Source: Blastococcus sp. URHD0036
Lineage (GTDB): Bacteria; Actinomycetota; Actinomycetes; Mycobacteriales; Geodermatophilaceae
Assembly (NCBI RefSeq): GCF_000701365.1
Contig: NZ_JNIK01000004.1
Coordinates: forward strand, 62,001 to 126,000
Reading direction: 5' to 3'
Length of the DNA stretch: 64,000 bases
The translations under genes were made by a program, and so were the position numbers. Below, piece after piece: positions 1,530 to 52,066 of the stretch. Each line of letters starts with the position of its first letter. Positions within the stretch are counted from its first letter, which is position 1. The notes beneath the pieces were generated by a model. It made no database searches, was not told the origin of the DNA, and saw only the letters and a list, made by a program, of their open reading frames with translations.

Positions 1530-3215
1530 TCATGCGGTCTCACCGCCGGCGGCACCGGGCGCGCGCACGCGGTTGCGTCCCCCGCGCTTGGCGCTGAACA
1601 GGTGGAGGTCGGCGGTGTCGAACAGCGAGCGCCACCCCGACGGCACCGCGGCCTGCTCGGGGTCGCGGGGCGGCGCGGTCGCGACACCGATGCTGACCGT
1701 GACCGGCTCGGGCAGCTGCAGGTCGCCCCAGTCGGCGTCGGCCACGGCCGCCCGCAGCCGCTCCATCGCCAGCAGCGCCTGGCTCTCGGTGGCCTCCGGC
1801 AGCACCACGAGGAACTCGTCGCCGGCCCACCGGTACACCTCGTCCCCGCCGCGGCAGTGCTCGCGCAGCAGGTCGGCCACCCGGCGCAGCACCTCGTCCC
1901 CGTGCGAGTGGGAGGTGTCGTCGTTGACCTCCTTGAAGCGGTCGACGTCCACCACGGCCAGCGACATCGGCGCCTCGCCCAGCGGCATGCTGCCCAGCCG
2001 CCGCTCGGCGCTGCGCCGGTTCCCGAGCCCGGTGAGCGGGTCCTCCAGCGCGTAGGTGCGCAGGACGGCGGCCTGCCGCTCGGCCTCGCGCAGCCGGCTG
2101 CGGCGGACGAACATCTCTGCCCACAGCTCCCGGCTCCGGGCGTGCGCCCGTCCCGCCTCGGACCGGTAGGCCTCCAGCCAGTGCAGCGCCTCGGCCGGCC
2201 GGCCCTGGGCGGCGGTGGCCTGCCCCAGCTCCAGCAGGCACTGCCGGTAGCGGCGCCGGTCACCGGTCGCGGCGAAGGCGCCGGCGGCGTCGACCAGCAG
2301 GTCGGTGGCCTCCTCCGCGGAGCCGCCGCCCGTGCGGTCGCGGGACAGCCGCGCCAGCAGCCGGGCCAGGACCAGGTCGGTGTAGCCGCGCAGCCAGATC
2401 CCGTCGTCGCGATGCACGCGCCGGTGCACCCGGCGCAGCGGGCCGAGCGCGTCCTCGAGGTCGCCGGCGCAGGCCATCGCCCACGCCTGGACGACGTCGA
2501 GGAGGTCCTGGTCGGCGGGGTCGGGTTCGCGGTCGAGCTCCCGCGCCTCCGTGGCGCAGGCGAGCGCGACGGCGGCCAGCTCCGCGGCGCGCTGGTCCTG
2601 GCCGCGGCGGCGCTGGGTCTGGGCCAGCTCGACGTGCTGCTGGGCGCACAGCCGCAGCAGCTGCCACCGGTCGGCCACGTCGGGCAGGGCGGCGGCGATG
2701 CGGGAGCCCTGCAGCGCCTGCGCCACCGCCAGCTGCTCCAGGTCCAGGGCGCCCAGGGTCAGCGAGAGCCACAGGTGCGCCTGGTGGTGCGGGCGGCCGC
2801 GGCCGGTCCCCCCGGCGGTGGGACCCGCGGCCTCGGCGAGCAGGCTGGCGTCGACGGCGAGCAGCATCGCGGCGTCGACGTGGTCGGCGGTGGCCTCCAC
2901 GTGCGCGAGGTAGGCGAGCGTGAGGGCCGTCGTCGCGGTGGGCGGGCAGCCGCCGAGGGCGGTCCGGGCGGCACCGACGGCCGCGGTGGCGGCGTCGGGA
3001 TCGGCGTCGATGAGGGCGCGACGGGCGTCGAACGCGTGCCGCCAGGCGACCCACGCGGGGTCGGTCGCAGAGTGGAGGAGGTCGGCGAGGTCGTCGTGCT
3101 CCCGGGCGAAGGACGGCGGGTCGACGGGGTCGCTTGCGGCCAGGAGACGCCAGAGCGCAGCATCCAGATCACGCTCCGTGACGCGGATGGTGCCGGGGAT
3201 GACGCATCCCTCCAC
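1530..3215 (-). CDS. Helical-repeat GGDEF diguanylate cyclase
   Basis: Probable soluble diguanylate cyclase of 561 residues. A long helical, TPR-like sensory region (about 1-375) is followed by a complete GGDEF domain (about 380-555: EDPLTGLGNRR, AVVDVDRFKEVND, signature AGDEF at 464-468). The first Gly of GGDEF is Ala, a change found in some active cyclases. An RxxD inhibitory site (RGGD) lies five residues upstream at the canonical spacing, so product feedback is plausible. The start is GTG at 3215; no good alternative start or Shine-Dalgarno is visible, so the N-terminus is uncertain. It is divergent from pheA and upstream of its tandem paralogue. The helical part presumably binds a partner or ligand, which I cannot name. 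Confidence 0.88.
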   Translation of the reverse strand: MEGCVIPGTIRVTERDLDAALWRLLAASDPVDPPSFAREHDDLADLLHSATDPAWVAWRHAFDARRALIDADPDAATAAVGAARTALGGCPPTATTALTLAYLAHVEATADHVDAAMLLAVDASLLAEAAGPTAGGTGRGRPHHQAHLWLSLTLGALDLEQLAVAQALQGSRIAAALPDVADRWQLLRLCAQQHVELAQTQRRRGQDQRAAELAAVALACATEARELDREPDPADQDLLDVVQAWAMACAGDLEDALGPLRRVHRRVHRDDGIWLRGYTDLVLARLLARLSRDRTGGGSAEEATDLLVDAAGAFAATGDRRRYRQCLLELGQATAAQGRPAEALHWLEAYRSEAGRAHARSRELWAEMFVRRSRLREAERQAAVLRTYALEDPLTGLGNRRSAERRLGSMPLGEAPMSLAVVDVDRFKEVNDDTSHSHGDEVLRRVADLLREHCRGGDEVYRWAGDEFLVVLPEATESQALLAMERLRAAVADADWGDLQLPEPVTVSIGVATAPPRDPEQAAVPSGWRSLFDTADLHLFSAKRGGRNRVRAPGAAGGETA

Positions 3216-4296: not shown

Positions 4297-6368
4297 GCTG
4301 GTCCGCGGCCCAGCCCGCTGGGCCACCAGACGCGGTCGCCGATCAGGTGGACGGCCGCGGGCACCATCAGCGTCCGGACGACGAAGGTGTCGAGCAGGAC
4401 GCCGAAGCCGACCAGGAACCCCAGCTGGATGAGGATCACCAGGGGCAGCACGGTCAGCGCGCCGAACGTCGCGGCGAGCACCAGGCCGGCGCTGGTGATG
4501 ACCCCGCCGGTGACGGCCAGCGCGCCCAGGACGCCGTCACGCGTCCCGTGCCGCAGCGACTCCTCCCGCGCCCGGGTCATGAGGAAGATGTTGTAGTCGA
4601 TCCCCAGCGCGACGAGGAACACGAACCCGATGAGCAGCACCTGCGGGTCGCTGCTGGGGAAGCCGAACAGCGGGTCGAACACCAGGGCGGCGACGCCGAC
4701 GGTCGCGAGCACGCTGAGCGCCACCGTGGCCACCAGCAGCAGCGGGGCGACGAGGGCCCGGAGCAAGAGCGCCAGCACGATCGTGATGACCAGCAGCACC
4801 AGCGGCACGATCACCGCCAGGTCGCGGGCGGCGGTGTCCTGGGTGTCGAGGTCCTGCGCGGTCGAGCCGCCGACCAGCGCCTCCGGGTCGACCTCGCGCA
4901 CCGTCGTCCGCAGCTCGGCGACGGTCTCCTGCGCCCGGGTGCTGTCGGGGGCGTCGGTGAGGGTGGCGTCGAGCCGGACCAGTCCGTCGACCACGGTCGG
5001 CGCGTCGCCCGGCTGCGCACTGAACGGCTCGACCCCGCCCACGCCGTCGAGCCCGGCCGCGGCCGCGGCGACCGCCTCCCAGTCCTCGACGGGGGTGACG
5101 ACCGTCGCCGGGCTGGAGGCGCCGGCGTCGTAGTGCCGGGCCAGCGCGACCTGGCCCTCGCCGGAGGGTGATCCGCCGCGCACGGCGTCGGACAGGGGGA
5201 TGCCCTCGGCGTCGAAGGCCGGCGCGAACGCCGCGAGGACGACGAGCAGCCCGACGCTGCCCAGCAGCGCCCGGCCCGGCCGGCGGCCGACGCTCCCGGC
5301 CACCCGCTCCCAGCCCCGGCCGTGCGGGTGCTCGCTGCCGAAGCGCGGGCGGAACGGCCAGAACGCCGCCCGGCCGAGCAGGACGAGCACCGCGGGCAGG
5401 AACGTGAGCGCGGCGACCATCGCCAGGGCGATCCCCACCGCGGAGATCGGCCCCAGCCCGCGGTTGGACCCCAGGTCGGAGAAGAGCAGGCACAGGACGC
5501 CGAGGACGACGGTGGCCGCCGACGCGGCGATCGGCTCCCAGGACTGCCGCAGCGCCACCCGCATGGCACTCGCCGGGGACTGCTCGCGGCGCAGCTCCTC
5601 GCGGTACCGGGCGACCAGCAGCAGGCCGTAGTCGGTGGCTGCCCCGACGACGAGGATCGACGCGATGCCCTGGCTCTGGCCGTTCACCTCGATCCAGCCC
5701 CGCTCGGCCAGCAGGTAGGCCACCGCGAGCGCCGCGACCAGCGCCAGGCCCGCGGTGAGGATGACGAGGAACGGCAGGAGGGGGCTGCGGTAGACGACGA
5801 GCAGGATGACGAGGACCACCCCGAAGGCCGCGAGCAGCAGGAGCCCGTCGATGCCCGAGAAGCCCGCGGCGAAGTCGTTGAAGAGGGCGCCCGGGCCGGT
5901 GACGTACTCCGTGGTCCCCGCCACGCCGGGCAGCGCGCGCAGGTCGTCGATCACCGGGGCGAGGGCGTCGCCGAGGTCGGGGCTGAACGGCAGGACCGCC
6001 TGCACCGCCTCGCCGTCCTCGGAAGGGATGGGCGGGGAGGCCGTGCCGTTGAGGGCGCCCGCCTCCTCGGCGACCGCGACGGCGTCGTCGACCCGGGTGG
6101 CGATCTGGGTGAGGGCGGCCGGGTCGAGCGGACCGTCGTCGCTCTCCCACAGCAGGACGACCGGCAGGGAACGCTCGGTGTCGAACTCCCGCAGCAGCTC
6201 CGAGACCCGCGTGGACTCGGCGCTGTCGGGCAGGAAGGCCGCGGAGTCGTTGGTCTGCACGTCGCCGAGCCGGCCGCCCAGCGAGCCGAGCGGGGCCGAC
6301 AGGGCGATCCACGCCAGGACGACGAGGGCCGGCAGCAACCAGCGGGCGACGGAGGTCCTGCGGGGCAT
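4185..6368 (-). CDS. MMPL-family RND transporter
   Basis: Inner-membrane exporter of the MMPL/RND superfamily, about 727 residues. A first membrane helix (about 10-30) precedes an extracellular domain, a five-helix bundle (about 165-340), a second extracellular domain, and a second bundle (about 520-690), the usual duplicated layout. Substrate unknown; relatives export lipids or drugs. The ATG at 6368 has GAGGG about nine bases upstream; a GTG directly before it is an alternative. The last 30-40 residues are encoded antisense to the end of pheA and look non-native (Ser/Ala-rich), so the true conserved end is near ...DRVWWPS. Divergent from a MarR gene with a palindrome between them, so MarR control is likely. 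Confidence 0.9.
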   Translation of the reverse strand: MPRRTSVARWLLPALVVLAWIALSAPLGSLGGRLGDVQTNDSAAFLPDSAESTRVSELLREFDTERSLPVVLLWESDDGPLDPAALTQIATRVDDAVAVAEEAGALNGTASPPIPSEDGEAVQAVLPFSPDLGDALAPVIDDLRALPGVAGTTEYVTGPGALFNDFAAGFSGIDGLLLLAAFGVVLVILLVVYRSPLLPFLVILTAGLALVAALAVAYLLAERGWIEVNGQSQGIASILVVGAATDYGLLLVARYREELRREQSPASAMRVALRQSWEPIAASAATVVLGVLCLLFSDLGSNRGLGPISAVGIALAMVAALTFLPAVLVLLGRAAFWPFRPRFGSEHPHGRGWERVAGSVGRRPGRALLGSVGLLVVLAAFAPAFDAEGIPLSDAVRGGSPSGEGQVALARHYDAGASSPATVVTPVEDWEAVAAAAAGLDGVGGVEPFSAQPGDAPTVVDGLVRLDATLTDAPDSTRAQETVAELRTTVREVDPEALVGGSTAQDLDTQDTAARDLAVIVPLVLLVITIVLALLLRALVAPLLLVATVALSVLATVGVAALVFDPLFGFPSSDPQVLLIGFVFLVALGIDYNIFLMTRAREESLRHGTRDGVLGALAVTGGVITSAGLVLAATFGALTVLPLVILIQLGFLVGFGVLLDTFVVRTLMVPAAVHLIGDRVWWPSGLGRGPAQRSPARTRESQASASVNASSVASSATGRFSRSSERG

Positions 6369-29777: not shown

Positions 29778-30881
29778 TCAGCGGGTGCCTGCCGCCGCGG
29801 TGACGAGGTCCTCGACACGCAGCAGACCGACGACGCCGCCGGTCTCGTCGGTGCAGACCACCGGGTCGAACCGCTGTGCCGGCGAGCGGGTCATCGCGCG
29901 GGCCAGCGTCTCGGTCGCGCCGGCGGAGAGCCGGACCCGCAGGGAGACGGGGGCGGTGTACGCCTCGGCGGTCCGCGGGTCGGCCAGCCGCAGCGCGAGC
30001 GGCTCGCCGAGCGGACCCACGAGGACGGCCGGGGGGACGAGAGGGGCGGGCTCCTCGGCCGCGCACTGGCGCACCGGCCGGACCAGCGGGGCGACGCTCT
30101 CGGTCAGCCGGGCGCGGGCGGTCTGCGCCGTGATCAGCCGGACGACGTCGGGGTCGAGCTGACGGAACTCGGGGGCGGGGCGGCCGAGCAGCCAGCCCTG
30201 GGCCAGCGGGGTGCCCAGCCGGGCGAACGCGGCCAGCTCGCCGGGGGTCTCTATGCCCTCGGCCAGCAGCCAGGCGTCGATCCGTCCGGCGAACTCGCCG
30301 ACCAGCTCGGCCAGGGCCAGCTTCGTCGGGTCGGTGTCGACGTCCTGCACCAGCGCGCGGTCGAGCTTCACCAACTGCGGGCGGACCGTGGTCATCTGCT
30401 GCAGCCCGGAGTACCCGGCGCCGGCGTCGTCCAGGGCCACCAGCGCGCCGCGGACGCGCAGGCCGTCGACGTGCCGGCGGAGCGCGTCGACGTCGTCGAC
30501 CGCGGTGTGCTCGGTCAGCTCGACGACGATCCGCGCGAGGTCGCCGACGGAGTGCAGGGCGTCCTGGATGGGCGCCGTCCCCAGCAGGTGCGGGCTGACG
30601 TTCACGGTGAGGAAGGTGTTGGGCGGCAGAGCGTCGCGGGCGGCCAGCGCCTTGTGCACGGCCAGCGCCTCCAGCTCCGGGCCCACGCCGGCGTCGGCCG
30701 CGGCCGCGAACCAGACGTCGGGGGTCGCGGTGCCCGGGAAGCGGGACAGGGCCTCGTAGCCGGCCACGCGGGCCCCCGCGAGGTCGACGATCGGCTGGAA
30801 GACCAGCGTGAGGTCGTCGGGGTCGGCCAGCAGCGGACGGCAGTCGGGCAGCGCCCTGCTGCGGGTGGAGATCGCCGTCAT
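29778..30881 (-). CDS. EAL-domain c-di-GMP phosphodiesterase
   Basis: 367-residue soluble protein. The EAL domain (about 22-245) hydrolyses c-di-GMP to pGpG. Its key residues are all visible: EAL at 43-45, Asn in TVNVSP, Glu in VELTEHT, the Asp pair in LDDAGAGYSG, Lys in VKLD, Glu in AEGIET, and AQGWLLGRP. It is therefore predicted to be active. A C-terminal region (about 275-365) ends in a CBS-like segment (VVCTDETGGVVGLLRVEDLV) that may sense a nucleotide. ATG at 30881 is nine bases after a CCGAT box. Divergent from the SpoIIE phosphatase gene. Confidence 0.94.
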   Translation of the reverse strand: MTAISTRSRALPDCRPLLADPDDLTLVFQPIVDLAGARVAGYEALSRFPGTATPDVWFAAAADAGVGPELEALAVHKALAARDALPPNTFLTVNVSPHLLGTAPIQDALHSVGDLARIVVELTEHTAVDDVDALRRHVDGLRVRGALVALDDAGAGYSGLQQMTTVRPQLVKLDRALVQDVDTDPTKLALAELVGEFAGRIDAWLLAEGIETPGELAAFARLGTPLAQGWLLGRPAPEFRQLDPDVVRLITAQTARARLTESVAPLVRPVRQCAAEEPAPLVPPAVLVGPLGEPLALRLADPRTAEAYTAPVSLRVRLSAGATETLARAMTRSPAQRFDPVVCTDETGGVVGLLRVEDLVTAAAGTR

Positions 30882-30888
30882 GGACTCC

Positions 30889-30916
30889 CCATCGGATGGC
30901 GCCGGGTCGCGGTTGA
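30889..30916 (-). promoter_or_regulatory. Possible FliA/WhiG-type promoter of the EAL gene
   Basis: On the minus strand TCAA (30916-30913), 16 bases, then TCCGATGG (30896-30889). CCGAT ends nine bases before the ATG, so the start site would fall on or next to it. The third GGDEF gene has the same 9-base spacing after GCCGAT. Confidence 0.4.
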
Positions 30917-30932: not shown

Positions 30933-30987
30933 TCACCCCCCAGAGGGAGGGCCACGCCGCGAGTCGGACGGATACGTTCCGGATGCG
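30933..30987. promoter_or_regulatory. Conserved intergenic block, copy 1
   Basis: TCACCCCCCAGAGGGAGGGC (30933-30952) occurs identically, reversed, at 50967-50986. The following bases also align: CGCCGCG, then GTCGGA, GG, GTTCCGG and TGCG, with small gaps. The block lies 51 bases from the EAL start on one side and 99 bases from the SpoIIE start on the other. It is probably a bidirectional regulatory element. Confidence 0.7.
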
Positions 30988-31051: not shown

Positions 31052-33763
31052 GTGCCCGGCCCGGTGCCCTCCGCCGTCCCCGATCCGCTGTCGGACCCGC
31101 ATCGGATCGCCGCGGCCCGTCGGCTGTTCCTGGAGGTCCCCGGCCCGGCGGCGTTCGACCGGCTCTCCGGCCTGGCCGCGCGGCTGCTCGGCGTGGGCCA
31201 CGCGAAGGTCACGATCTTCACCGACGCCGACACCGTCGTGGGCGGGCACGGCCTGCCGCCGGGCGTCGTGGGCGGCCCGGCGCTGCTCACCGGGGCGCTC
31301 TCGGCGATCACCGTGCGCGGTGCCCAGCCGCTGGTGGTCCCCGACGCGGCCGCCGACCCGGCGGTCGCCGACCTGCCGGCCGTCACGTCGGGGCAGGTCG
31401 CCGCCTACCTCGGTGCGCCCCTGGTCTCCGCGTCGGGGCACGTGGTCGGCGTCCTCGCGGTGTACGACGAGACGCCGCGGGAGTGGACCGAGGACGACGG
31501 GGAGCTGCTGGAACAGCTGGCCACCTCCGTCGTCGCCGAGCTCGAGCTCTCCGCCGCGAAGTCGGCGATCGGCACCTCGGCCGCCCGCCTCTCGATCGCG
31601 CTCGAGGCCAGCGGCATCGGCATCTGGGAGCGGGACCTGCGCACCGGGGCGGTGACGTGGGACGAGCGGTGCGCGGCCGTGTTCGGCATGGACCAGGCGC
31701 TGCCCGCCACCGACATCGAGGCGGTGCTCGCCTCCCGGGTGCACCCCGACGACCACGAAGCGGTCCGCAAGGAGATGGAACGGGCGGACACGGAGACCGG
31801 CGAGTACGCCCTCGAGTCCCGGGCCGTGCGCGCGGACGGCTCGGTGCGCTGGACGGTGTCCCGCGGCCGCGTCGTCCGCAACGCCCGCGGCGAGAAGATC
31901 CGCATGATCGGGACGATCCTCGACGTCAGCGAGGCGCGGGAGCAGTCGCAGCGGCGGATGGCCGCCGTCCAGCGGGCCGCGGCGATCGCCGAGGTCGCTG
32001 CCGAGATGGCCAACGCGACCGCCGTCCGGCAGCTCGCCGACATCGCCCTCCGGGGTGCTGCCGTGCTGGGCGCCTCGTCCAGCGGCCTGACGGTGCAGGA
32101 GCCCGGCGGCGGGCTGCGGCTGCACCTGACCCGGCAGCTGGTCGACACCGTGGCCAGCGCGGCCGACGTGCAGCTCCCCCCGGAGGGCGTGGTCCTGCCC
32201 CCCGAGGACGAGGACCTGCCCCACGTGCACGTGACCCGGACCGGCGAGCGGCTGTTCTTCGCCGATGCACGCCAGGCCGAGACCCGGTTCCCGCGGATGG
32301 CCGAGATCAACGAGGCCCTCGGCACACGGGCGCTGGCGGTCCTGCCGCTGCGGGTGGAGGGCCGGCTGCTGGGCAGCTACGCGGTCGTGTGGGACACCCA
32401 CCACCACGGCTTCGCCGACGAGGACGTCGAGCTGCTGGACGGTCTCACCGCGCAGCTCGCCCTGAGCGTGTCCCGGTTGCAGGCCGATGCCGAGCGCGAC
32501 GCGGCCAACCGGCGGCTGCAGCTGCTGGCCGACGTCGGCCGGGTGCTGTCCGGGGACTTCGACATCACCCGGCAGGTCACCCAGCTGGCCGAGCTCGTGG
32601 TGCCGGCGCTCGGCGACTGGTGCTGGCTCGTGGTCACCGACGAGCAGGGCCGCATGGAGGAGCTCGCTTCGGCGCACCGCGATCCCGACCGCGCCGGCCA
32701 GCTGGCCGAGTACGTGCACGCGATGGTCGCGGTGATGACCGACGACGCCACGGCCCGGATCGTCACCCGGACCGGGCGGCCGCTGGTGCTGCCGCACATC
32801 GACGCCGAGCGGATCCGGCTGGCCCTGCCCGACGAGGAGACCCGGTCGGCGCTGTCCCGGCTGGACATGGAGGGCGGCGTGGTCGTGCCCCTGGTGGCCC
32901 GCGGCCGGACCATCGGCGCCCTCGGCCTGTTCAACGGGGTCGACCGCGGCGAGCACACCCAGGACCAGGTGGACGCCGCCGTGGAGGTGGGCCGGCGGGC
33001 GGGTCTCGCCCTGCACTCGGCGCGGCTGCACGCCCAGCAGCGGGACCTCGCCGACGCGCTCCAGCACAGCATGCTCACCGCGCCGCCGGCGGTGGCCGGC
33101 TGCCAGGTCGTGGTGCGCTACGTGCCCGCGGCGGCCGGCGCGGACATCGGCGGGGACTGGTACGACGCCTTCGCCCAGGAGGACGGGACGACGGTGCTGG
33201 CCATCGGCGACGTCGTCGGCCACGACCGGCACGCCGCCGCGGCGATGGGACAGGTCCGGAGCCTACTGCGCGGGATCAGCCACGCCACCGGGGCGGCGCC
33301 GGCGGAGGTGCTCACCCGGCTGGACCGTGCCATCACCGGGCTGGTGCCCGGTGTCATGGCGACCGCCATCGTCGCCCGCCTGGAGCGCCCGGCCGGGATC
33401 TCCGCGGGCGCGGTCCTGATGCGCTGGTCCGACGCCGGCCACCCCACGCCGGTGGTCATCGCCCCGGACGGCGCGGTCCAGGTGCTGGACCTCCCCGGTG
33501 ACCTGCTCCTGGGCGTGGACGCCTCGTCGGCCCGCTCCGACCGCTGCCTGCTCCTCCCCGCGGGAAGCACGGTGCTGCTCTACACCGACGGGCTCGTCGA
33601 GCGCCGGGACCGCGACCTCGACACCGGCACCGGCGAGCTGGTGGCGGTGCTGGAGCAGGCCGGGGGCCTGCCGCTGGAGGAGCTGTGCGACCGGGTGCTG
33701 GAGCGGCTGTTCCTGCCCGACGCCGAGGACGACGTCGCCCTCCTCGCCCTCAGAGTCGGTTGA
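31052..33763 (+). CDS. GAF/PAS multi-sensor SpoIIE-type protein phosphatase
   Basis: 903-residue cytoplasmic PP2C-family phosphatase of the RsbU/SpoIIE kind. Order of domains: GAF (about 20-165), PAS (about 175-295, GIGIWERDLRTGAVTWDERCAAVFGM), GAF (about 310-460), GAF (about 470-640), PP2C/SpoIIE (about 665-903). Metal-binding motifs are DIGGDWYDAF near 698, IGDVVGHDRHAAAAMGQ, MRWSDAGHPTPVVI, LLYTDGLVERRDRDLDTG and DDVALLALRV. It would dephosphorylate an anti-anti-sigma factor in response to small-molecule or redox cues; no such partner is in the window. GTG at 31052 follows GAGGAGG. Confidence 0.93.
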   Translation: MPGPVPSAVPDPLSDPHRIAAARRLFLEVPGPAAFDRLSGLAARLLGVGHAKVTIFTDADTVVGGHGLPPGVVGGPALLTGALSAITVRGAQPLVVPDAAADPAVADLPAVTSGQVAAYLGAPLVSASGHVVGVLAVYDETPREWTEDDGELLEQLATSVVAELELSAAKSAIGTSAARLSIALEASGIGIWERDLRTGAVTWDERCAAVFGMDQALPATDIEAVLASRVHPDDHEAVRKEMERADTETGEYALESRAVRADGSVRWTVSRGRVVRNARGEKIRMIGTILDVSEAREQSQRRMAAVQRAAAIAEVAAEMANATAVRQLADIALRGAAVLGASSSGLTVQEPGGGLRLHLTRQLVDTVASAADVQLPPEGVVLPPEDEDLPHVHVTRTGERLFFADARQAETRFPRMAEINEALGTRALAVLPLRVEGRLLGSYAVVWDTHHHGFADEDVELLDGLTAQLALSVSRLQADAERDAANRRLQLLADVGRVLSGDFDITRQVTQLAELVVPALGDWCWLVVTDEQGRMEELASAHRDPDRAGQLAEYVHAMVAVMTDDATARIVTRTGRPLVLPHIDAERIRLALPDEETRSALSRLDMEGGVVVPLVARGRTIGALGLFNGVDRGEHTQDQVDAAVEVGRRAGLALHSARLHAQQRDLADALQHSMLTAPPAVAGCQVVVRYVPAAAGADIGGDWYDAFAQEDGTTVLAIGDVVGHDRHAAAAMGQVRSLLRGISHATGAAPAEVLTRLDRAITGLVPGVMATAIVARLERPAGISAGAVLMRWSDAGHPTPVVIAPDGAVQVLDLPGDLLLGVDASSARSDRCLLLPAGSTVLLYTDGLVERRDRDLDTGTGELVAVLEQAGGLPLEELCDRVLERLFLPDAEDDVALLALRVG

Positions 33764-49931: not shown

Positions 49932-50873
49932 TCAGCCGAGCAGCTTGGCCTTCTGCGCCGCGAACTCCTCCTCGGTGAGGATCCCGGCGTCGCGGAGCTC
50001 ACCGAGCCGGCGCAGCTGCTCGATCGGGTCGGGCGCCGGTGCCGCCGCGGGCGCCGCGGGCTGCGGTGCGCCGGGGAACTGCGGCGGCGTCACGTGGTGC
50101 ACGTACTGCGACTGCCGCTCCACGGTCTTCCGGTGCCGGGCGTCGCTCACCAGCGGGGCCAGGAAGTCGTACACCTGCTGGGGGCTCTCGATGTTGTCGA
50201 GGACCACCTGACCGCTGGTCCGTCCGGGCTCGGGGACGGCGTTCAGGTCGAAGGTCGACTGCTGGACGCCGTAGGCCGGGTCGTCCAGGCCGAGCACGAG
50301 GTCGCCGACGTCCTTGCCGCGCTGCCAGACGGCCTGTCGGATGTCCATGTCCCGGATCGCCCACAGCGGCACGCTCTCGGTGCGGGTGCCGAGGAGCCCG
50401 CTCTCGATCCAGACGCGGTCGGCGGTGATCCGGTAGCGCGCCTTCGCCACCCCGGCCGCGCCGGTGGCACCGCCCTTGCTCTCCCCGGCCCAGAGCGTGG
50501 TGGGGTCGTTGGCCCACTGCTCGGTCCGCTTCGCCGACTGCTCGGCGAGCTTCGCCTTGCCCTGCTCGGCGACCGCCTTCCCCTGGTCGGCGACCTGCTT
50601 GAGCCGGTCCTTCCAGCTGGGCTTGGCCGCCGCGGGCGCGCTCGACGGGGGTGCCGCGAACCCGGCGTCGTTCGAGCCGTAGTAGAGGACGTTCGTGTCC
50701 CCGGGCGCCGGCGGTGGCGGTGGCGGGGCCTCGCCGGGCAGGGGCAGCTCCCGGGTGGGCACGTCGACGCCCGTGGTGCCCTGGTCCGAGACGTGCTCGG
50801 TCCAGGCCGTGCCGTTCCAGTAGCGCAGCTCGTGCGTCCCGCTCGGATCGGGCAGCCAGTTCGCGTCGACCAT
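49932..50873 (-). CDS. DUF2510 / PH-like / SHOCT domain protein
   Basis: 313-residue protein. The N-terminal DUF2510 motif is WLPDPSGTHELRYWNGTAWTEHV. A charged coiled-coil linker (about 85-120, rich in KQ/AEQ) follows. A bacterial PH-like domain (about 140-265) and a C-terminal SHOCT motif (DPIEQLRRLGELRDAGILTEEEFAAQKAKLLG-type, about 283-313) complete it. SHOCT ends are thought to mediate oligomerisation; function unknown. ATG at 50873 has GGAGGG. Its upstream gap, shared with a GGDEF gene, contains the conserved block also found near the EAL/SpoIIE pair. Confidence 0.88.
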   Translation of the reverse strand: MVDANWLPDPSGTHELRYWNGTAWTEHVSDQGTTGVDVPTRELPLPGEAPPPPPPAPGDTNVLYYGSNDAGFAAPPSSAPAAAKPSWKDRLKQVADQGKAVAEQGKAKLAEQSAKRTEQWANDPTTLWAGESKGGATGAAGVAKARYRITADRVWIESGLLGTRTESVPLWAIRDMDIRQAVWQRGKDVGDLVLGLDDPAYGVQQSTFDLNAVPEPGRTSGQVVLDNIESPQQVYDFLAPLVSDARHRKTVERQSQYVHHVTPPQFPGAPQPAAPAAAPAPDPIEQLRRLGELRDAGILTEEEFAAQKAKLLG

Positions 50874-50937
50874 CGATGTCCCTCCGGCGTCGCAGGGACC
50901 GTCCCGGCGACCGCGACACCATGCCAGCGCCCCCGTC

Positions 50938-50986
50938 CGCACCGGAACACCTCCGACCGCGGCGCTGCCCTCCCTCTGGGGGGTGA
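50938..50986. promoter_or_regulatory. Conserved intergenic block, copy 2
   Basis: The reverse complement of 50967-50986 is identical to 30933-30952, and the adjoining bases down to 50938 align with copy 1 (CGCCGCG, GTCGGA, GTTCCGG, TGCG). It lies 42 bases from the GGDEF start and 93 bases from the SHOCT start. Orientation relative to the c-di-GMP gene is the same as in copy 1. Confidence 0.7.
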
Positions 50987-51013
50987 GGCGAACTCCTGCG
51001 GCGACCTCACCGC

Positions 51014-51021
51014 GCCGATCC
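51014..51021 (+). promoter_or_regulatory. GCCGATCC -10-like box of the GGDEF gene
   Basis: GCCGAT is followed by nine bases and the GTG at 51029, as CCGAT is followed by nine bases and ATG in the EAL gene. The expected -35 position (TCCT) is a poor match, so the sigma-class assignment is tentative. Confidence 0.35.
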
Positions 51022-51028
51022 CTCCGGT

Positions 51029-52066
51029 GTGAGGTTGCCGTCCACGTTCCGGGCCCGAGACGCACGGAGCACCGTGCGTTCCGCCGTCCTGATCGTCGGC
51101 GTGTGCGCCGTCGTGCTCGTGGTGTTCACGGTCTTCGGGCCGAACTCCGTCAGCCCGACGTCGCGCACGACGTCGTGGGTCGGGGCGGTCATCCTCTTCG
51201 TCGCGGCCGGCGCCTGCCTGCTGGCCCGCCCGGACACCCTCGACCGGCGCGGCGCCTTCCTCGGCATCGGGATCGGCGGGGCCCTGCTGGTCTGCGTGAT
51301 GAACGTCCTCACCCGCGACCCCTCGGCCGCCGCGCAGGCGTTCCTGGCGTTCCCCGTGCTGTGGGCGGCCACCCACCTCCGGCGCGGGGCCGTCGCCCTG
51401 ATCACCGGCGTCGCGCTGCTGGGCGACGCCGCGAGCCTGCTGGCGATCCTGCCCGCCGCGGACGCCCTCATCGACGTCGTCTTCTTCGGGGCGGTGCTCG
51501 TGGTGACGGCCGCGATGCTCGACCGCGCCGCCGTCGTCCAGGACCGCCTGGTCCAGGCGCTGCAGCAGCAGGCCACCGTCGACTCCCTCACCGGCCTGCT
51601 CAACCGCCGGGTGTTCGAGGAGGCTCTGGCCCACGCGCTGGACCGGGCACCGCACCCCGACGGCACCGCGCTGGTGCTCCTCGACGTCGACTCGTTCAAG
51701 CAGATCAACGACCGCCACGGGCACCCCGTGGGTGACGACGCGCTCGTCCACCTGGCCGGGCTGGTCCGCCGGCACGTCCGCGCCGGCGACGCGGTGCTGA
51801 GCCGGCTGGGCGGCGACGAGCTCGCCGTCCTGCTGCCCGGCTGCACGCCGGAGGTCGCCGCCCAGCGGGCCGACGAGCTGCTGCAGTCGGTGCGCTCCAC
51901 CCCGCTGGCGCTGCCGGGCGGCGGGCTCCTGGCGCTGTCGGTCAGCGTGGGTGTCGCGCACGCGCCGGAGCACGCGCAGGGGATGCGGGACCTGTACGCG
52001 GCCGCCGACGCCGCCCTCTACTCGGCCAAGCGCGGCGGTCGCGACCGCGTCGAGGTCGCGCCCTAG
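51029..52066 (+). CDS. Membrane-bound GGDEF protein
   Basis: 345-residue protein with about six membrane helices (17-165) as sensor, followed by a GGDEF domain (about 180-345: DSLTGLLNRRVFEEAL, LLDVDSFKQINDRHGHPVGDD). The signature is GGDEL (about 261-265) instead of GGDEF. Between RAGD and the signature there are six residues rather than the canonical five, so the inhibitory site is out of register. Cyclase activity is plausible, but product inhibition is probably lost. GTG at 51029 lacks a Shine-Dalgarno and fits a leaderless message. Its stop is four bases from the convergent reductase. Confidence 0.9.
   Translation: MRLPSTFRARDARSTVRSAVLIVGVCAVVLVVFTVFGPNSVSPTSRTTSWVGAVILFVAAGACLLARPDTLDRRGAFLGIGIGGALLVCVMNVLTRDPSAAAQAFLAFPVLWAATHLRRGAVALITGVALLGDAASLLAILPAADALIDVVFFGAVLVVTAAMLDRAAVVQDRLVQALQQQATVDSLTGLLNRRVFEEALAHALDRAPHPDGTALVLLDVDSFKQINDRHGHPVGDDALVHLAGLVRRHVRAGDAVLSRLGGDELAVLLPGCTPEVAAQRADELLQSVRSTPLALPGGGLLALSVSVGVAHAPEHAQGMRDLYAAADAALYSAKRGGRDRVEVAP

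What the first reader, a model, noticed from the sequence alone, without database searches (positions are those of the whole stretch)
30933..30987. A conserved regulatory block shared by two divergent gaps that each border a c-di-GMP gene
TCACCCCCCAGAGGGAGGGC occurs at 30933-30952 (EAL/SpoIIE gap) and, reversed, at 50967-50986 (SHOCT/GGDEF gap). The next 30 or so bases also align (CGCCGCG, GTCGGA, GTTCCGG, TGCG). In both places the block has the same orientation relative to the c-di-GMP gene (EAL 51 bases away, GGDEF 42) and the partner gene (SpoIIE 99, SHOCT 93). A 20-base identity is very unlikely by chance in 64 kb even at this GC content. It suggests a bidirectional operator that co-regulates a cyclase, a phosphodiesterase, a SpoIIE phosphatase and a SHOCT protein: an undescribed c-di-GMP regulon.
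Basis: seen in the sequence. Interest (0 to 1): 0.72.

Follow-up and report, generated by a model that had tools for sequence, protein, structure and literature searches.

The report
Shared c-di-GMP gene promoter and regulon
Two identical DNA blocks in a soil bacterium look like binding sites inside one type of promoter that seems to control about half of its genes carrying the domain that makes the signal molecule c-di-GMP, a circuit predicted here from sequence.

Summary
The 20-base identity is real and not chance. Each block holds a 16-bp palindromic operator, YC[A/C]CCCnnnnGGGTGA, which matches the Streptomyces BldM homodimer site TCACcCgnncGgGTGA. In both gaps it sits upstream of a sigma-WhiG/FliA-type promoter (TCAAG-N16-CCGAT) that points into the c-di-GMP gene, with the start codon 9 nt after CCGAT. 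The arrangement recurs across the family (Geodermatophilaceae). A matrix trained without the window's genus gives the two sites 29.3 and 27.0; none reaches 18 in 800 kb sampled from the same genome. Sites of 18 or more lie in the 3 kb upstream of 16 of 32 GGDEF domains (15 distinct sites), and also before the EAL gene and a flagellar FlbD gene. The genome encodes WhiG, its anti-sigma RsiG, and a BldM-like regulator whose own gap carries the palindrome in most relatives seen. So a c-di-GMP regulon is supported. Equal bidirectional control of SpoIIE and SHOCT is not: the composite promoter reads only into the c-di-GMP genes, and SHOCT upstreams of 12 genomes outside the genus lack the operator. 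BldM as binder, activation and feedback are inferred. It is a new wiring of known parts.

The parts
29778..30881 (-). EAL-domain c-di-GMP phosphodiesterase gene (ATG 30881); EALSR motif intact, no strongly hydrophobic segment
   Evidence: Pfam EAL 4e-40; sequence; orthologue-level match in 83 of 108 family genomes searched, own included
30891..30895 (-). CCGAT -10-like element of the EAL promoter, 9 nt before the ATG
30912..30916 (-). TCAAC -35-like element, 16 nt from CCGAT
   Evidence: TCAA at this exact spacing in 62 of 80 anchored orthologues
30933..30948 (-). Operator 1 (TCCCTCTGGGGGGTGA), BldM-type palindrome, 16 nt upstream of the -35
   Evidence: composite matrix 29.3; profile R1 E 7.3e-6 in own genome
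30988..30999 (+). CGTGTCAGCATG, conserved element on the SpoIIE side (putative SpoIIE promoter element)
   Evidence: element form found upstream of the operator in 55 of 67 orthologous gaps, at variable distance
31052..33763 (+). GAF-PAS-SpoIIE phosphatase gene, divergent to EAL
   Evidence: Pfam; homologue beside EAL in all 30 EAL loci that were fetched with 1.5-kb flanks
49932..50873 (-). DUF2510-bPH_2-SHOCT protein gene
   Evidence: Pfam; family search
50920..50929 (-). CGCTGGCATG, element upstream of the SHOCT gene; CTGGCAT-like words also in relatives without the GGDEF neighbour
   Evidence: read by eye
50971..50986 (+). Operator 2 (TCCCTCTGGGGGGTGA), 7 nt upstream of the -35
   Evidence: composite matrix 27.0
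50994..50998 (+). TCCTG, weak -35-like element of the GGDEF promoter
51015..51019 (+). CCGAT -10-like element, 9 nt before GTG 51029, same spacing in both congeners
51029..52066 (+). GGDEF (GGDEL motif) diguanylate cyclase gene with hydrophobic N-terminal half (GTG 51029)
   Evidence: Pfam GGDEF 8.4e-39

Best explanation
Both blocks are the regulator site of one kind of composite promoter: a 16-bp palindromic operator, then 16 or 7 nt, then a sigma-WhiG/FliA-type promoter that drives an essentially leaderless c-di-GMP gene. The proposed binder is the family's BldM-like NarL-type regulator, acting as activator. RNA polymerase with WhiG reads the promoter, and WhiG is held back by RsiG when c-di-GMP is high. 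The regulon takes in about half of the genome's GGDEF-domain genes (several with an EAL domain too), the EAL phosphodiesterase and a flagellar gene, so c-di-GMP level and c-di-GMP enzyme supply would feed back on each other. Shown by sequence: the sites, their spacing, conservation, target genes, and the presence of WhiG and RsiG. Inferred: BldM as binder, activation rather than repression, leaderless transcripts, and the feedback.
For: EAL upstreams of 83 genomes: CCGAT/TCGAT in 80 of 83 (used as the anchor), TCAA exactly 17 nt before it in 62 of 80, start codon 9 nt after it in 58 of 80. The best match to the BldM consensus starts at -52 to -55 in 54 of 80; it scores 19 or more of 24 in 52 of 80, against 1.9% of shuffles. 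A profile without the window's genus ranks the window EAL site second of 94 own-genome hits. A composite matrix gives 29.3 and 27.0 for the window sites; in 800 kb of sampled own genome 0 reach 18, forward or reversed. 16 of 32 GGDEF upstreams score 18 or more (15 distinct sites), reversed control 0 of 32; start codon exactly 9 nt after CCGAT in 12 of the 17 distinct sites of 16 or more. Similar targets in seven relatives. WhiG equivalog NF004935 at 390 bits, cut-off 343; best PDB matches 6pfj/6pfv chain A, named there only 'RNA polymerase sigma factor' and recalled as the WhiG of the RsiG complex. Twin-motif RsiG is present. The bldM-candidate gap carries the palindrome at 22 or more of 24 in 54 of 80 loci, 0 of 800 shuffles. 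Spacing classes 15-18 and 5-8 differ by about one helical turn.
Against: No binding, transcript or expression data. The window GGDEF site has a weak -35 (TCCTG), and the congener G110 copy scores only 14.4. In 3 of 83 EAL upstreams no CCGAT/TCGAT anchor was found, and 13 of 80 lacked the operator right half as searched. 15 of 32 GGDEF domains have no own site of 16 or more. Of the 30 R1 hits with loci, 6 had no coding start downstream, among them the ninth-ranked, so R1 alone is not specific. In Streptomyces it is BldM Group II, not Group I, that depends on whiG (PMC4125116 passage), whereas the sites here look like Group I. No Streptomyces BldM sequence was compared in any call, and the best NCBIfam matches of the candidate are far below their cut-offs. 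The 80 loci are mostly close relatives.
Confidence: 0.75

Rival explanations
1. The same regulon, but the palindrome is bound by a different NarL/LuxR-type or other regulator, or by a repressor, not by the BldM-like protein.
For: The genome has other response regulators, one of them itself a target (L185); one LuxR-type regulator lies about 8.4 kb upstream of whiG (L150:277-993).
Against: The palindrome matches the footprinted BldM Group I site (PMC4125116 passages) and recurs in the gap of the BldM candidate in the family.
Confidence: 0.25
2. A true bidirectional operator that controls all four genes, SpoIIE and SHOCT included.
For: It lies between divergent genes in both gaps. SpoIIE stays beside EAL in all 30 EAL loci with 1.5-kb flanks. 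A CGGAAC-like word sits on the SpoIIE/SHOCT side in both gaps of the window genome and of G110, with variants in G109.
Against: The composite promoter scores -4.9 towards SpoIIE and -0.2 towards SHOCT. Distance to the SpoIIE-side element varies from 5 to 94 nt. SHOCT upstreams of 12 genomes outside the genus have no operator (best 4.6).
Confidence: 0.15
3. Chance identity, a generic intergenic repeat, or a recent copy of one gap into the other with no function.
For: The exact 20-mer's core is private to this genome, and similarity runs beyond the operator.
Against: Only two near-identical copies exist genome-wide. Both sites score independently against a matrix from other genera, and both congeners keep both promoters in degenerate form, one of the four weakly.
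Confidence: 0.03
4. The palindrome is part of sigma-WhiG promoter recognition itself (an extended upstream element), with no separate regulator.
For: It co-occurs with the -35/-10 in the regulon.
Against: It has two spacing classes about a helical turn apart and is a 16-bp palindrome, as expected of a dimeric protein; it also occurs in bldM-candidate gaps.
Confidence: 0.05

Closest known systems
BldM Group I regulon of Streptomyces venezuelae (PMC4125116; passages read)
   Same: 16-bp palindrome TCACcCgnncGgGTGA; orphan, atypical response regulator
   Different: There, whiG dependence belongs to Group II (BldM-WhiI site TGnnCCGnnCGGGTGA), not Group I; c-di-GMP and GGDEF have 0 occurrences in that paper's main text. 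Here a Group I-like operator sits on sigma-WhiG-type promoters of c-di-GMP and flagellar genes
WhiG targets of Rubrobacter radiotolerans (PMC8325347; passages read)
   Same: WhiG/RsiG switch; flagellar-type promoters, 5 of the 12 mapped ones in front of DGC/PDE genes
   Different: No BldM-type operator in the passages read; type IV pilus rather than flagellar genes; single-motif RsiG there, twin-motif here
RmdB as antagonist of RsiG-WhiG in Streptomyces (PMC13232838; abstract and passages read)
   Same: c-di-GMP enzymes act back on WhiG
   Different: Protein contact, not transcription of the enzymes by WhiG; BldM has 0 occurrences in its main text
Flagellar sigma-28 promoters (TAAA; GCCGATAA, as quoted in PMC8325347)
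   Same: -10 core GCCGAT
   Different: -35 is TCAAG, often degenerate (TGGAG, TCCAG), with an upstream palindrome; the start codon is mostly 9 nt after CCGAT

Membership tests
sigma-WhiG/FliA promoter | -10 core of GCCGATAA | tested here: met
   CCGAT at both window sites and in 73 of 80 anchored EAL upstreams, TCGAT in 7; the anchor was chosen on this core
sigma-WhiG/FliA promoter | -35 TAAA-like at fixed spacing | tested here: met
   TCAA at exactly 17 nt in 62 of 80; window EAL TCAAC met, window GGDEF TCCTG weak
sigma-WhiG/FliA promoter | cognate sigma factor in the genome | tested here: met
   one of six TIGR02479 matches is over the cut-off (283.5 bits); that protein passes the WhiG equivalog NF004935 (390 bits)
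sigma-WhiG/FliA promoter | transcript start at the predicted base | not testable with these tools
   needs 5'-end mapping
BldM Group I operator | 16-bp palindrome TCACcCgnncGgGTGA | tested here: met
   family operator consensus; window copies TCCCTCTGGGGGGTGA keep the right half and a degenerate left half
BldM Group I operator | a BldM orthologue in the genome | tested here: inconclusive
   NarL-type regulator between guaB and whiB/groEL; the Streptomyces gene order and sequence are recalled, not compared
BldM Group I operator | protein binding | not testable with these tools
   needs footprinting or ChIP
BldM-WhiI Group II operator | TGnnCCG left half-site | not tested
   left halves read as YC[A/C]CCC, closer to Group I; no search for WhiI was made
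RsiG-WhiG c-di-GMP switch | RsiG with twin E3S2R3[Q/H]3D motifs | tested here: met
   PF22802 two matches over the cut-off in one frame; both motifs exact

The most novel reading that the evidence does not exclude
A self-referential c-di-GMP circuit: a sigma factor gated by c-di-GMP (WhiG with RsiG) together with a BldM-type activator transcribes about half of the cell's GGDEF-domain genes and a conserved phosphodiesterase as leaderless mRNAs, alongside flagellar genes. The second messenger would thus set the supply of its own enzymes, and the Streptomyces sporulation regulators would be running a motility/attachment switch in Geodermatophilaceae.
Probability: 0.45. Interest if true: 0.8.

Novelty: new variant of a known kind. 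Interest (0 to 1): 0.68.

Why it matters
BldM and WhiG are known as Streptomyces development regulators. Finding their type of sites joined in one promoter on c-di-GMP and flagellar genes across a family of soil actinobacteria suggests what this pair does outside Streptomyces sporulation. It also gives a compact, directly testable case of a second messenger controlling the transcription of its own enzymes through a c-di-GMP-gated sigma factor. The 9-nt start spacing and the two spacing classes about one helical turn apart are sharp predictions.

Tried and rejected
Exact or near-exact 18-mer across the family: 0 of 111 other genomes with 1 mismatch or fewer; this first looked like refutation but only showed that the exact string is private. 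Blastn of the EAL-gap block in the own genome found only the sister site above noise, so a generic repeat was rejected. Sigma-70 and terminator scan of the first gap: nothing. Equal bidirectional control judged unlikely. Profile R1 does not span the 7-nt spacing class well: the window GGDEF site scored only 11.7 bits, so I built a two-spacing matrix. In that 800-kb sample the forward strands do exceed the reversed control at low scores (10 against 2 at 12 or more, 2 against 0 at 16 or more); one sampled stretch covers a GGDEF upstream that itself scores 16.3. Dropped rows: 7 lower-identity EAL copies (L135-L141, 55-59%, judged paralogous without a tree) were fetched but left out of the 83; 9 of the 92 genomes with an EAL match had only such lower-identity copies; of the 55 operators with spacing 15-18, the 3 of the window's genus were left out, giving the 52 training rows. 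For the neighbourhood table I took 22 of the 94 R1 hits, leaving out ones that looked intragenic. No Streptomyces BldM could be fetched for comparison. Paper searches for a prior description showed none in their listings; the library holds open-access papers only.

Full report
Observation. The 20-mer is present at both stated places and nowhere else in the window at up to 3 mismatches, against 0.03 expected. In the 5.18-Mb genome its 18-base core has exactly two copies; the next match has 2 mismatches. The distances to the four genes are as stated, worked out from the sequence and the reading frames, and the GGDEF start at 51029 is supported by the two congener homologues, which align from residue 1. 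Pfam confirms EAL, GAF-PAS-SpoIIE, DUF2510-bPH_2-SHOCT and GGDEF.

Who it is. The candidate BldM protein is 96% identical to one from Blastococcus sp. TF02A-26 and 90% to Trujillonella endophytica. Of the 80 loci returned (the best of 148), all but two carry genus or family titles that I read as Geodermatophilaceae; one of the two is titled MAG Frankiales, the other is flagged unverified. So the window lies in that family.

The exact string is private, the operator is not. With 1 mismatch or fewer the 18-mer occurs in 0 of the other 111 family genomes. But an EAL gene with a match at E 1e-60 or better is found in 92 of 108 genomes searched, and I collected the upstreams of 83 orthologue-level copies, one per genome, own included. 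Anchored on the last CCGAT/TCGAT before the start (found in 80 of 83; 73 CCGAT), TCAA stands exactly 17 nt upstream in 62 of 80, and the start codon 9 nt downstream in 58 of 80 and 8 nt in 14. The best match to the Streptomyces BldM consensus begins at -52 to -55 in 54 of 80; scores of 19 or more of 24 occur in 52 of 80 against 1.9% of 1600 dinucleotide shuffles. The column counts give YC[A/C]CCCnnnnGGGTGA. The distance from operator to -35 is 15-18 nt in 55 of 67 and 5-8 nt in 9 of 67: two classes about one helical turn apart, as expected of an activator touching RNA polymerase from one face.

Independent test on the window. I built profile R1 from 52 upstreams with the window's genus left out. 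In the whole own genome it ranks the window EAL site second of 94 matches at E 10 or less. A composite matrix from the same rows that allows both spacing classes gives 29.3 for the EAL site (gap 16) and 27.0 for the GGDEF site (gap 7). In 40 spread-out 20-kb stretches of the own genome, both strands, none reached 18, and none in the reversed control; 2 reached 16 forward, 0 reversed. In both congeners both promoters are found, with CCGAT 9 nt before the GGDEF GTG in all three species; the composite scores are 37.8 (G110) and 33.7 (G109) for EAL and 14.4 (G110) and 24.6 (G109) for GGDEF, so the G110 GGDEF copy is weak.

The regulon. I looked at the surroundings of 22 of the 94 R1 hits and scanned 16 downstream proteins against Pfam. 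Nine of 16 carry c-di-GMP domains: GGDEF-EAL in L182, L184, L187, L190, L194 and L198, GGDEF in L188, L192 and L196. The others are FlbD in a flagellar cluster, an OmpR-type regulator, PIG-L, PAP2 and three without a family. Of the 30 R1 hits with loci, 6 had no coding start downstream, the ninth-ranked among them. Turning the question round: the genome has 32 GGDEF matches, the window's own included. In the 3 kb upstream of each domain the composite site scores 18 or more in 16 of 32 (L372 repeats the site of L365, so 15 distinct) and 16 or more in 18 of 32 (17 distinct), with 0 of 32 in the reversed control; the start of the frame into GGDEF lies exactly 9 nt after CCGAT in 12 of those 17, a feature not in the matrix. 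In seven relatives R1 gave 76 matches at E 0.01 or less. I looked at the 30 that came with loci: 16 precede a gene with a GGDEF or EAL domain by home-made HMMs, or 12 of 26 without the four that were training rows; by eye, others are FlbD-like, homologues of the OmpR-type regulator (four of seven genomes), and one pilin-like gene.

The regulators. One of six FliA/WhiG-type matches in the genome is over the family cut-off, and that protein passes the WhiG equivalog model. Its best PDB matches are 6pfj and 6pfv chain A, labelled there only as RNA polymerase sigma factor and recalled by me as the WhiG of the RsiG-c-di-GMP complex, at 310 bits against 160 for FliA. By eye it lies upstream of the gene for EF-Ts. 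RsiG (PF22802) is present with two exact c-di-GMP motifs in one frame; in print, 16 of 16 Geodermatophilaceae have the twin-motif form (PMC8325347, passages). A NarL-type regulator sits between guaB and whiB/groEL, the place I recall for Streptomyces bldM; by eye its receiver lacks the usual phosphoacceptor. Its upstream 300 nt holds a palindrome scoring 22 or more of 24 in 54 of 80 loci, 0 of 800 mononucleotide shuffles, which fits autoregulation by the same protein; these loci are mostly close relatives and not independent.

What the block does not do. In the two window gaps the composite promoter scores -4.9 towards SpoIIE and -0.2 towards SHOCT. SpoIIE is conserved beside EAL in all 30 EAL loci fetched with 1.5-kb flanks, yet the element on its side (ATGCTGnCACG) lies 5-94 nt from the operator (sd 13; 55 of 67), against sd 4 for operator to -35. 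In SHOCT upstreams of 12 genomes outside the genus (13 loci, two from one genome) the best operator score on either strand is 4.6, against 17.7, 13.1 and 15.5 in the window genome, G110 and G109. I have not explained it.

Known and new. The operator is like the BldM Group I site (PMC4125116) and the promoter like the flagellar/WhiG consensus. WhiG promoters on DGC/PDE genes are known in Rubrobacter (PMC8325347), and a phosphodiesterase that frees WhiG from RsiG is known in Streptomyces (PMC13232838). In the listings I saw no description of the combination, or of this regulon in Geodermatophilaceae; the library is open-access only. I therefore call it a new variant of a known kind.

Certainty. 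I hold the conserved composite promoter and its link to c-di-GMP genes at about 0.95, WhiG as reader at about 0.85, BldM as binder at about 0.65, and the feedback loop at about 0.5. All function is inferred from sequence.

Noticed in passing
L149:11841-11868 (own contig C17:86841-86868): Palindrome CTCACCCAGCGGGGTGAG between the BldM-like gene and whiB; similar palindromes in most of 80 related loci; suggests autoregulation and perhaps control of whiB.
   Followed up: yes
window 30976-30982 and 50942-50948: GTTCCGG/CCGGAAC word 22-27 nt beyond the operator on the SpoIIE/SHOCT side in both gaps, with CGGAAC-like words in the congeners; may be a divergent-promoter element.
   Followed up: partly
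L185:4334-4394 and 4910-5200: The OmpR-type regulator in the regulon is divergent to what looks by eye like a second FlbD-like gene; a homologous regulator is an R1 target in four of seven relatives searched.
   Followed up: partly
C18:290952-291006 (L195): R1 hit (16.2 bits) upstream of what looks by eye like a phosphoglucomutase gene; a possible link of the regulon to glycogen.
   Followed up: no
L229 (G094): R1 hit upstream of a gene that looks by eye like a Flp-type pilin, hinting that pili are in the regulon in another genus.
   Followed up: no
window 1569-2048 (-): Another GGDEF domain in the window (C4:63569-64048) with no composite site in its 3-kb upstream (L382).
   Followed up: yes
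L186:5217-6472: Two small proteins in tandem that look secreted, without a Pfam family, each with its own composite site (30.0 and 31.3).
   Followed up: no
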